Origin: Lunatimonas salinarum
GTDB taxonomy: Bacteria > Bacteroidota > Bacteroidia > Cytophagales > Cyclobacteriaceae
NCBI RefSeq assembly: GCF_017811155.1
Contig: NZ_JACVCV010000015.1
Coordinates: 62,001 to 126,000, forward strand
Reading direction: 5' to 3'
DNA: 64,000 nucleotides
Made by a program: the position numbers and the translations under genes. The notes under the pieces are model-generated. The model saw only the letters and a list, made by a program, of their open reading frames with translations, did not search any database and was not told where the DNA came from. Positions 61,260 to 63,927 of the stretch are shown piece after piece; the first letter of the stretch is position 1; the number at the start of each line of letters is the position of its first letter.

Positions 61260-61664
61260 CTAGATGCCTTCTCCCGGTGGCTCGATTTGGAACCGCTTTA
61301 GGTTGCGGTTCATATACGCCTGCCAGGTAACCACATTAACCTTTTCCTGGTCCGCGTAGGCATAGCCAAAATCGTAGCAAAAATAATAGTAATTGCCTTT
61401 TTGGGTGATGTATTGGTGGGTGTAGAAATCAAAATCGAACCCTTGGCTGTCCAATACCTCCCTGCGAACGCTGGTAAGACCTATTGGGTTGAGACCCTGT
61501 AGGATCCGGCGGTTTTTCCGCAACACTTTGTTGATATCCAAAATCGTCTTTTCGCTCCGGCGCTTATTCCGGTTGTGCCGCTGAAACCTGCATTGGTCCG
61601 AGCAATATACTTTATCTTCCCGGCCGTGTAAGACCGTTCCACATTCTGGACATTTTCGTTCCAT
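61260..61664 (-). CDS. Small zinc-ribbon protein (DUF2116-like)
   Basis: A 134-aa protein starting MERKCPECGTVLHGREDKVYCSDQCRF, with Cys5, Cys8, Cys21, Cys25 forming a zinc ribbon. The rest (IxDINKVLRKNRRIL, then FDFDFYTHQY and YYYFCYDFGYAY) is not a domain I know by function; nucleic-acid binding is possible. Its start codon lies 2 nt from the 48-bp palindrome, so its leader RNA would fold over the ribosome-binding site. Divergent from the tyrosine recombinase and perhaps functionally linked. A longer frame through the palindrome exists but is less likely. Confidence 0.72.
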   Translation of the reverse strand: MERKCPECGTVLHGREDKVYCSDQCRFQRHNRNKRRSEKTILDINKVLRKNRRILQGLNPIGLTSVRREVLDSQGFDFDFYTHQYITQKGNYYYFCYDFGYAYADQEKVNVVTWQAYMNRNLKRFQIEPPGEGI

Positions 61665-61666
61665 AA

Positions 61667-61714
61667 CCGTGTTTTTACACGTGTATAAACGTTTATACAC
61701 GTGTAAAAACACGG
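61667..61714. repeat. Perfect 48-bp palindrome made of three 10-bp palindromes
   Basis: The 24-base left half (begins CCGTGTTTT) is the exact inverse of the right half (ends AAAACACGG). The centre holds TACACGTGTA (61676-61685), TAAACGTTTA (61686-61695) and TACACGTGTA (61696-61705), each a palindrome on its own, with ACGT centres exactly 10 bp apart. It lies between the divergent zinc-ribbon and recombinase starts. Operator, recombinase site or RNA hairpin are all possible. Confidence 0.92.
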
Positions 61715-61757
61715 ATAATATACGATAAAGTTGCTTTTTGGGAAACAAAAAAAAACC

Positions 61758-62870
61758 ATGGAAAAGAAACCGACCGTATACCTGAACTTCTTGGACCCAA
61801 ATCGGACTGAAAACGTGTATTTTAGACTAGGAAAGGGACACCCATTACGGGGGAAGCTGGACGGCCTTACCTGGCTTCATTACTCAACAGTGCATTGTCG
61901 GTGGGAAATGCCCTATTCCGAACAGTGCCTGCAACTACTCCGGCAGATCTGTGGTCCTGGCATCCTGGTAAACACCTATTACCTGAACCGCGTGCAGCCC
62001 ACCTATGCGGCCGAGTGGCAAATCACAAAGGCTACCCTACCCCCATCTACCCCAGATCAGCGGTCAGACCTCCCTACCCTATGGGCTATACCCATCGTAG
62101 AAGCCGGCAAAACGATTATCCGGTACCGCTTTTCGTACAACAAACCCATCTACCAGCTATTGAAATCCCTATCCTTTATCTCCTGGAACACCAAATACCG
62201 CAGCTTTGTGGGTGAAAACCATGCTGAACATTTCAAACAATTGATCGAATCGCTTCGGGGAATAGCCATATTGGCCTTTCGCAACGACTATCAGATCAAA
62301 GACATGGCACTGCTCCAAGCGTATCAAGCCCAATGGCTAAAATCCGATCAGCAAAGGCCTTGCCGGCTGGTCTTTCTCCAATGGATGCAGGCGAACGAAA
62401 AACACTACCTGATCCTGATGCTGCTGTACGGCGGAGGATTGCGTATCGGAGAAGTGCTCAACCTAAAGATTACCGACCTAGAAGTTGACCGCAAAATGAT
62501 CCGTATACGGCAGGCAAAAGGTAAAAAAGACCGATATACCCTATTGCCCGCCGCTATACTGGACCGGTTACAGCAATACCTACGAGCTACAAAGGCAAAG
62601 GAATTTGTATTTGAGGGGCAGTTTGGCGGAAAATACAGTAGCAGCAGCATTCAACAGTTTACCCGAAAGTACGCGGCTATAGCCGGCATCAAAAAGCGCC
62701 TGCACCCCCATATGCTAAGACACAGCTTTGCCACGCACTTGCTGGAAGGCGGTACGGATTTACGGTTTATACAGCAATTGTTGGGGCATAAATCGACCAA
62801 GACGACCGAAATCTACCCCCACGTAGGCCGACGGAACCTGGGTCAGATCACCTCACCCGGTGATTTGTAG
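61758..62870 (+). CDS. Tyrosine recombinase/integrase
   Basis: A 370-aa recombinase. Catalytic residues: Arg229 (GGGLRIGE), Lys254 region (KGKKDR), His318-x-x-Arg321 (HMLRHSFATHLL), His344 (LLGH) and Tyr353 (TTEIYPHV). The C-terminal half is close to Xer/phage-type integrases of Bacteroidota. Residues 1-130 (VYLNFLDPNRTENVYF, LTWLHYSTVHCRWEMPY) are an added N-terminal part, then a SAM-like core-binding domain (about 130-205). The extra helix of integron IntI is absent. It probably cuts a site near its own gene; the 48-bp palindrome lies 43 nt upstream. Confidence 0.88.
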   Translation: MEKKPTVYLNFLDPNRTENVYFRLGKGHPLRGKLDGLTWLHYSTVHCRWEMPYSEQCLQLLRQICGPGILVNTYYLNRVQPTYAAEWQITKATLPPSTPDQRSDLPTLWAIPIVEAGKTIIRYRFSYNKPIYQLLKSLSFISWNTKYRSFVGENHAEHFKQLIESLRGIAILAFRNDYQIKDMALLQAYQAQWLKSDQQRPCRLVFLQWMQANEKHYLILMLLYGGGLRIGEVLNLKITDLEVDRKMIRIRQAKGKKDRYTLLPAAILDRLQQYLRATKAKEFVFEGQFGGKYSSSSIQQFTRKYAAIAGIKKRLHPHMLRHSFATHLLEGGTDLRFIQQLLGHKSTKTTEIYPHVGRRNLGQITSPGDL

Positions 62871-62968
62871 GATAGCTAACAAGTATTGAAATGAAAAAGC
62901 TAGTTGCCTATAATCGGAATTTCGCTAAATTTAGAAGTCTAACCCACTGGGTACATAGGACAGCTAAC
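62868..62968 (+). repeat. Direct repeat TAGGAyAGCTAAC, 88 bp apart
   Basis: TAGGATAGCTAAC at 62868-62880 (its TAG is the recombinase stop) and TAGGACAGCTAAC at 62956-62968, one mismatch. The second copy leads into the hairpin. Confidence 0.55.
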
Positions 62969-62988
62969 CGCAAGGGGTTGCGGTTAGC
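62963..62988 (+). repeat. Strong hairpin after the recombinase gene
   Basis: Perfect 11-bp stem GCTAACCGCAA / TTGCGGTTAGC with loop GGGG. No T-run follows, so it is less likely a terminator; could be a recombination or RNA structure. Confidence 0.65.
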
Positions 62989-63012
62989 CGGTAGTTGTAG
63001 TACATTTTGAAA

Positions 63013-63552: not shown

Positions 63553-63690
63553 ACGGGCTACAGTCGAGTAGGTAAAGGGGAATCCCACCCCTAAACCTCT
63601 CACAGAACCGTACGTGAATCTCTCGATTGTTCATGATGGATTTGTTTTTAGTTATATTCACGAATGCTTGGGCATTTCATACGGCTCTTA
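63553..63690 (-). ncRNA. 3' end of a group II intron (domains V-VI), domain V interrupted
   Basis: Read on the minus strand, GAGCCGTATGAA (plus 63676-63687) and GATTCACGTACGGTTC (plus 63605-63620, preceded by the GAGA loop) are the two sides of group II intron domain V, followed by a domain VI hairpin (GGGGTGGGATTCCCC) and the end CCTACTCGAC. Joined directly they give the standard 34-nt domain V; here about 49 nt (63627-63675) are inserted in the upper stem. The rest of the intron toward its 5' end is not intact, so it is a dead remnant. Confidence 0.7.
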
Positions 63691-63717: not shown

Positions 63718-63927
63718 CTAGACTAATTTGTAGCCCAGTTCCCAATGGTAGAACAGGTTTGGATAAGAAACGGTAACTTGTCTAAGCCATTTAACTGCCT
63801 TGACTTTGCTTCTGTAACTGGAAAACAACAATGCCCCAAAATCGGCAACTTGGAATACCCCAAAAATGGCAACAATAATACACCAGTAAGTTTCCCAATG
63901 GGGCATGCCCCATTGGGAAAACTGCAC
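63718..63927 (-). pseudogene. C-terminal fragment of a group II intron maturase
   Basis: The last 35 or so codons (KVKAVKWLRQVTVSYPNLF, then YHWELG) match the usual end of group II intron reverse transcriptase/maturases, and the stop lies 30 nt before domain V, as in intact introns. The codons before this do not resemble a maturase, so only the end survives. Confidence 0.6.
63891..63920. repeat. Perfect 30-bp palindrome
   Basis: TTTCCCAATGGGGCA and its exact inverse with no loop, centred at GCATGC (63905/63906). It would form a stable hairpin on either strand; it lies upstream of the maturase fragment. Confidence 0.8.

What the first reader, a model, noticed from the sequence alone, without database searches (positions are those of the whole stretch)
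61667..61714. 48-bp perfect palindrome of three abutting 10-bp palindromes between a zinc-ribbon gene and a tyrosine recombinase
TACACGTGTA, TAAACGTTTA, TACACGTGTA with ACGT centres exactly one helical turn apart would place three dimers on one DNA face; flanking arms extend the symmetry to 48 bp. A perfect palindrome this long is rarely kept by chance. It touches the start codon of the zinc-ribbon gene. It could be an operator for the recombinase or zinc-ribbon protein, or the recombination site itself.
Basis: seen in the sequence. Interest (0 to 1): 0.72.

Follow-up and report, generated by a model that had tools for sequence, protein, structure and literature searches.

The report
Palindromic switch at integron-like arrays
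A perfect 48-letter DNA palindrome beside a recombinase gene is one case of a control site conserved in many Bacteroidota, probably the docking place of a small zinc protein that regulates a gene-collecting (integron-like) system.

Summary
The palindrome at 61667-61714 is real, perfect and far beyond chance. It is one case of a conserved cis-element: three TA..CG..TA units centred 10 bp apart with dyad symmetry, in the gap between a divergent zinc-protein (ZR) gene and a tyrosine recombinase. Leave-one-genus-out, 24 of 36 gaps beat all 100 shuffles (17 of 29 when loci first found through the palindrome are left out). Eleven of the other 12 share one ZR clade and have a variant with 11-bp spacing. 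That operator type changes once on the ZR tree but five times on the recombinase tree, where one clade is rejected (p 7e-7): the site follows ZR, not the recombinase. In 80 named loci the site is at 28 of 33 pairs, at 15 of 47 ZR genes without a detected recombinase, and in 3 of 1463 control windows. Recombinases of this kind head cassette-like arrays, some on plasmids; three further palindromes in this genome head gene runs without a detected recombinase. The window's recombinase lacks its core-binding domain and is probably inactive. Best explanation: operator of the ZR protein, controlling its own gene, the recombinase and the array. Binding and direction of control are inferred. Seven searches of held papers listed no description.

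The parts
61667..61714 (.). 48-bp perfect palindrome, proposed operator
   Evidence: Own reverse complement; motif score 26.4, next unrelated place in the window 6.8
61676..61685 (.). unit 1 TACACGTGTA
   Evidence: Sequence
61686..61695 (.). central unit TAAACGTTTA
   Evidence: Sequence
61696..61705 (.). unit 3 TACACGTGTA
   Evidence: Sequence
61260..61664 (-). ZR gene: 134-aa protein with four invariant cysteines (C5, C8, C21, C25), proposed binder of the palindrome
   Evidence: Alignments of 20 and 78 sequences; model pLDDT 89.2
61758..62870 (+). tyrosine recombinase, 370 aa, lacking the core-binding domain present in the closest relatives (478-479 aa); junction near 62390
   Evidence: PF00589 only; relative L105 has PF13495 at 205-280; split alignment
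62868..63006 (+). attI-like stretch that starts at the recombinase stop codon; holds a hairpin CTAACCGCAAGGGGTTGCGGTTAG
   Evidence: 82% identical to segments at two solo palindromes of the same genome
63013..63549 (+). first gene of the cassette-like run (predicted lipoprotein by its start, my reading)
   Evidence: ORF list

Best explanation
The palindrome is an operator in the shared regulatory region of a divergent gene pair. Most likely the ZR protein binds it as dimers on three units one helical turn apart, on one face of the DNA, and so regulates its own gene (start codon 2 bp away) and, on the other side, the recombinase with the cassette array behind it. Copies that head gene runs without a detected recombinase would put those runs under the same protein. 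Shown: the element is conserved, dyad-symmetric with halves that change together, nearly confined to this kind of locus in the DNA examined, and its type follows ZR ancestry rather than recombinase ancestry. Inferred: that ZR touches the DNA, that it represses, and that promoters lie under the element.
For: Leave-one-genus-out motif: 24 of 36 gaps beat all 100 shuffles; 17 of 29 without the window and the six loci (L105-L108, L110, L139) first met through the palindrome search. The 11 gaps with the other operator type are exactly one ZR clade, support 99.9, one change of type on the ZR tree; on the recombinase catalytic-domain tree five changes, one clade rejected at p-AU 6.8e-7. Named set: site at 28 of 33 pairs (22 of 27 without training overlap), at 15 of 47 ZR genes without a detected recombinase, in 3 of 1463 control windows. 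Symmetric pairs 12.42 of 18 against 10.48 (sd 0.26) when halves are exchanged between sites, also with one site per group. Site nearer to the ZR start (median 8 bp) than to the recombinase start (51 bp) in 23 gaps. Two recombinase loci without a neighbouring ZR gene keep the site (L063, L075), and their genomes have a ZR gene elsewhere.
Against: No binding or expression data. Partial Mantel tests within the 10-bp type favour ZR with all 43 pairs (9 of 2000 against 155 of 2000 permutations) but are a tie with one pair per group (0.193 against 0.197). 32 of 47 ZR genes without a detected recombinase have no site at this score. The 11-bp motif was learnt and read on the same 11 gaps, and L125 (9.0) and L135 (2.8) fit it poorly; the 11 were named from the gap test, with L137 (gap 753 bp, no site) set aside. 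Fold searches give no confident DNA-binding fold. The best promoter-like box (recalled consensus) has one mismatch.
Confidence: 0.68

Rival explanations
1. The recombinase itself binds the palindrome, as an accessory or autoregulatory site or as an old recombination site.
For: Recombinase genes are next to many sites; some recombinase loci without a neighbouring ZR gene have the site (2 of 8 in L047-L075: L063 and L075; also L030, which was found through the palindrome). Mantel tie with one pair per group.
Against: Operator type does not follow recombinase ancestry (five changes; one clade rejected). Sites lie upstream of 15 of 47 ZR genes with no recombinase detected in the fetched DNA. Cassette-like genes lie on the far side of the recombinase.
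Confidence: 0.12
2. A third, unlinked host regulator binds the element and controls ZR, recombinase and arrays.
For: Nothing here shows contact by ZR; the solo copies in this genome have no ZR gene beside them.
Against: The match of operator type and ZR clade would need an unlinked regulator to change in step with ZR. The SOS motifs known from Bacteroidetes, CTAA-N5-TTAG and GGA-N5-TCC (PMC8565304, passages), are absent around the palindrome.
Confidence: 0.12
3. The symmetry serves a hairpin or cruciform (in the ZR leader RNA or in the DNA), or is a repeat kept perfect by template switching.
For: Four copies in the genome; one solo copy has different letters yet is fully symmetric over 48 bases (L007); the window site lies 2 bp from the ZR start codon.
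Against: Most relatives keep the unit spacing and CG centres but only partial symmetry (mean 12.4 of 18 pairs). The copies in this genome all sit at recombinase or gene-run heads.
Confidence: 0.08

Closest known systems
LexA control of integron integrase genes (PMC3108266, abstract seen)
   Same: A palindromic operator at the promoter of a cassette-shuffling tyrosine recombinase
   Different: Here the candidate regulator is a divergent neighbour of another protein family and the operator is a three-unit array; the SOS motifs reported for Bacteroidetes are absent
Integrons; Treponema type with the integrase facing the array (PMC3607928, passages)
   Same: Recombinase reading toward a one-way run of small genes, with attC-like repeats between them
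   Different: Recombinases stay below the NCBIfam integron-integrase cut-off; the extra N-terminal part and the ZR partner are not part of the integron definition as I know it
DUF2116 (PF09889, probable treble clef)
   Same: 51 of 78 ZR proteins match it weakly at E <= 0.01; one plasmid homologue is annotated so
   Different: The window protein has E 0.013 and 15.9 bits, below the curated 26.8; the match covers only the N-terminus
MqsA-type antitoxin (recalled: zinc-binding N-terminus, DNA-binding C-terminus, palindromic operator)
   Same: Possible domain order; autoregulation is the model
   Different: Match not significant (E 0.087) and no toxin partner seen

Membership tests
Integron | Integrase of the integron type (TIGR02249 cut-off 265 bits) | tested here: not met
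   Window 133.6 bits; intact relatives L105 190.3 and L236 193.5. L105 does reach NF040815 'site-specific tyrosine recombinase/integron integrase' (237.1, cut-off 220); L236 does not (200.7).
Integron | attC sites between one-way cassettes | tested here: inconclusive
   12 of 13 gaps on two plasmids hold CGTTR, 2.0 expected from shuffles, but the motif was chosen after reading the gaps, and the recalled core GTTRRRY fits only some. No attC covariance model was run.
Integron | attI site and cassette promoter | tested here: inconclusive
   A stretch after the recombinase recurs at two solo palindromes; no recombination or promoter data.
Integron | Recombination of cassettes by the integrase | not testable with these tools
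   Needs excision or integration assays.
SOS (LexA-like) operator of Bacteroidetes | CTAA-N5-TTAG or GGA-N5-TCC | tested here: not met
   No exact match in window 61601-61780.
Multi-unit operator | Symmetric units one helical turn apart | tested here: met
   Centres 10 bp apart in the window and in the motif of the first type; 11 bp in the second.
Multi-unit operator | Bound by a regulator that acts on the adjacent genes | not testable with these tools
   Needs gel shift, footprint and reporters.
Recombination site of the recombinase | Joins the array or changes orientation between relatives | tested here: not met
   In the 36 pairs fetched the order is ZR, gap, recombinase; 35 gaps are at most 162 bp. 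No reads were available.
DUF2116 (PF09889) | Curated score cut-off | tested here: not met
   15.9 bits against 26.8.
Winged-helix DNA-binding fold for ZR residues 43-123 | Confident structural match | tested here: inconclusive
   Best VIA rows RctB domains 2-3 (Z 4.7, rmsd 3.5, 71 aligned) and Stn1 (Z 4.4, rmsd 2.8, 57 aligned); no Foldseek match at E <= 0.001.

The most novel reading that the evidence does not exclude
Across Bacteroidota a dedicated zinc-binding regulator and its three-unit palindromic operator form the control module of an integron-like cassette system. The pair swaps recombinases while keeping operator and regulator matched, travels on mobilizable plasmids, and governs gene runs without a recombinase in trans, in the place that SOS control has in classical integrons.
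Probability: 0.45. Interest if true: 0.78.

Novelty: new variant of a known kind. Interest (0 to 1): 0.62.

Why it matters
IntegronFinder 2.0 reports complete integrons in Bacteroidetes only for Salinibacter (PMC9024848, passages), though intI genes were reported for the Bacteroidetes/Chlorobi group in 2008 (PMC2426708, passages). Recombinases of the kind seen here, with a conserved control module, are common in the genomes searched. If the ZR-operator pair is the switch, it gives a direct handle on when these bacteria shuffle and express captured genes, and a marker for finding such arrays, including those that have lost the recombinase.

Tried and rejected
Recombination site or invertible element: not the first choice, because the palindrome lies away from the array side, occurs at ZR genes without a detected recombinase, and 35 of 36 gaps are short.

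Dispersed repeat: the four genomic copies sit at recombinase or gene-run heads.

Decayed recombinase as source of the 250-bp leader in solo copies L009-L011: no significant protein match. Solo copy L141 does have a remnant (E about 1e-6).

Partial Mantel tests to tell ZR from recombinase: suggestive with all 43 pairs, a tie with one pair per group. The tree test replaced them; it was added when I checked the report, and it raised my confidence in the mechanism from 0.60 to 0.68 and in the novel case from 0.40 to 0.45.

attC-like core of 14 bases in the genome: three exact places and one with a mismatch, against three for the reversed control pattern at up to one mismatch. The core was read from two of the three places, so only C79:2448 is independent evidence. 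A 221-bp attC-like query found only itself.

Promoter scan: only boxes with one mismatch. Fold searches: no confident match. Viral contigs: five partial ZR-like matches, not followed.

Literature: seven searches listed no paper on this ZR protein, this motif or ZR-controlled integrases; they cover only the held open-access library, as listings.

Full report
Observation. The window holds a perfect 48-bp palindrome at 61667-61714, its longest; about 2e-10 are expected by chance. It lies between two divergent genes: ZR (61260-61664, minus strand, ATG 2 bp from the palindrome) and a tyrosine recombinase (61758-62870, plus strand, 43 bp away).

Copies in the same genome. A DNA search with the palindrome found four places in 5.46 Mb: the window copy and three solo copies. 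One solo copy is fully symmetric over 48 bases although several letters differ from the window copy (L007). The three solo copies share a leader of about 250 bp; in two of them it is followed by a segment 82% identical to the stretch that begins at the recombinase stop codon in the window. Genes next to that side run in one direction. No recombinase match was found in the leaders. An attC-like 14-base core read from two of these loci has one further exact place in the genome, about 9.5 kb downstream of the third solo copy in the same orientation; the control caveat is under Tried and rejected.

Conservation at the gene pair. In 295 genomes of the family (own included), 172 have a match to the recombinase at E <= 1e-40 and 255 to ZR at E <= 1e-10; the palindrome itself is found in 11 of 295 by DNA search. 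I fetched 35 further pairs from 33 genomes, picked from the printed hit lists by closeness on one contig, so not a complete set; with the window all 36 are divergent. Six of them (L105-L108, L110, L139) had already been met through the palindrome. The gaps show three CG-centred units with varying letters. A palindromic motif trained without the own genus gave 24 of 36 gaps above all of 100 dinucleotide shuffles; 17 of 29 without the window and those six. In the whole window only the palindrome and its own overlaps score 10 or more.

Two operator types and two trees. Of the 12 gaps that failed, L137 has an odd gap of 753 bp and was set aside. The other 11 share a best palindromic motif with 11-bp spacing (learnt and read on the same gaps, L125 and L135 fit poorly). 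Their ZR proteins are exactly one clade of the 36 (support 99.9): one change of type on the ZR tree. On the tree of recombinase catalytic domains (last 185 residues of each) the type changes five times, and holding the 11 together is rejected (p-AU 6.8e-7). Thus L118 has a recombinase near those of L111 and L113 but the other ZR and the other operator. The quick tree method was used, and the group was named from the gap test, not from the trees. This is the best evidence that ZR, not the recombinase, sets the operator.

Held-out set. A scan of genome contigs kept the best 80 of 447 loci; by title all come from Bacteroidota or unnamed bacteria, with one Chlorobiota MAG. In 33 a recombinase was found, each time divergent and adjacent; 28 of these have the site, 22 of 27 after dropping six loci whose ZR protein is identical to a training one. 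Of 47 ZR genes without a detected recombinase 15 have it; seven of the 47 have under 1.5 kb of upstream DNA, so a recombinase could be missed there. Of 1463 control windows from the same loci 3 have it. The threshold of 10 was set after seeing the window scan. In an earlier set of 29 recombinase loci (L047-L075), 12 of 21 with ZR and 2 of 8 without reach the 10-bp score; one of the eight is a fragment (L051), and the 11-bp model was not run there.

Symmetry. Sites keep more symmetric pairs (12.42 of 18) than when halves are exchanged between sites (10.48, sd 0.26); the same holds with one site per group, 27 groups. Letters change in step on the two halves.

Mantel tests. Within the 10-bp type, partial Mantel tests over 43 pairs favoured ZR; with one pair per group ZR and recombinase are equal.

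ZR protein. Four cysteines are invariant in 78 sequences. AlphaFold2 gives a confident model (pLDDT 89.2): cysteine-bearing N-terminus, helix 23-58, C-terminal alpha/beta domain; the C-terminal part alone gives 92.2. Fold searches give no confident relative; several weak top rows are winged-helix proteins by my own knowledge.

Recombinase and arrays. The closest relatives are 478-479 aa, with an unassigned N-terminus, a SAM-like core-binding domain and the catalytic domain. The window protein (370 aa) lacks the core-binding domain and is probably inactive (inference). Downstream run a lipoprotein-like gene and genes that look like toxin-antitoxin pairs and a Fic protein (my reading of the ORFs). 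On plasmids of Rufibacter tibetensis and Pontibacter kalidii, both typed mobilizable, ZR and recombinase are followed by one-way runs of mostly small genes and the site is present (scores 11.6 and 19.1). 12 of 13 gaps between those genes hold CGTTR, 2.0 expected, motif chosen after reading. I call this integron-like, since the integron-integrase cut-off is not met. An integrase facing its array is known from Treponema (PMC3607928, passages).

Literature. PMC9024848 (passages): complete integrons in Bacteroidetes only in Salinibacter. PMC2426708 (passages): intI genes in the Bacteroidetes/Chlorobi group. PMC3108266 (abstract and outline): LexA controls many integrase genes. PMC8565304 (passages): Bacteroidetes SOS motifs, not found around the palindrome. 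PMC8138268 (passages): recombinase classes. No paper on the ZR-operator pair appeared in the listings.

Verdict. Mechanism confidence 0.68, raised from 0.60 by the tree test.

Noticed in passing
61758-62870 (junction near 62390): The recombinase lacks the core-binding domain that its closest relatives have, by an in-frame difference of about 100 residues; a second, partial copy (83% identical over 120 residues) lies on contig C81 and a 51% relative on C111 of the same genome.
   Followed up: partly
63891-63920: A second perfect palindrome of 30 bp, TTTCCCAATGGGGCATGCCCCATTGGGAAA.
   Followed up: no
63563-63689, minus strand: Rfam match to a group II intron (RF00029, 43.5 bits, gathering score 40) right after the first cassette-like gene.
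   Followed up: no
L010 6573-6620 and 7272-7346: One solo palindrome lies about 650 bp from a tRNA match, with tandem repeats and a run of N between them.
   Followed up: no
L105:538-1971, residues 1-204; L236:7434-8885: Recombinases of this kind carry an N-terminal part of about 200 residues without a Pfam match.
   Followed up: no
L235, L236: ZR-recombinase pairs with one-way runs of small genes lie on plasmids typed as mobilizable (Rufibacter tibetensis, Pontibacter kalidii).
   Followed up: partly
L024 (G000:C122:318267): A second ZR gene of the same genome, 40% identical, has a three-unit site (score 13.4) upstream and no recombinase match beside it.
   Followed up: partly
L142 and L144: Solo sites in two Cyclobacterium-group genomes share 478 bp at 86% identity, a leader unlike that of the window's genome.
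   Followed up: no
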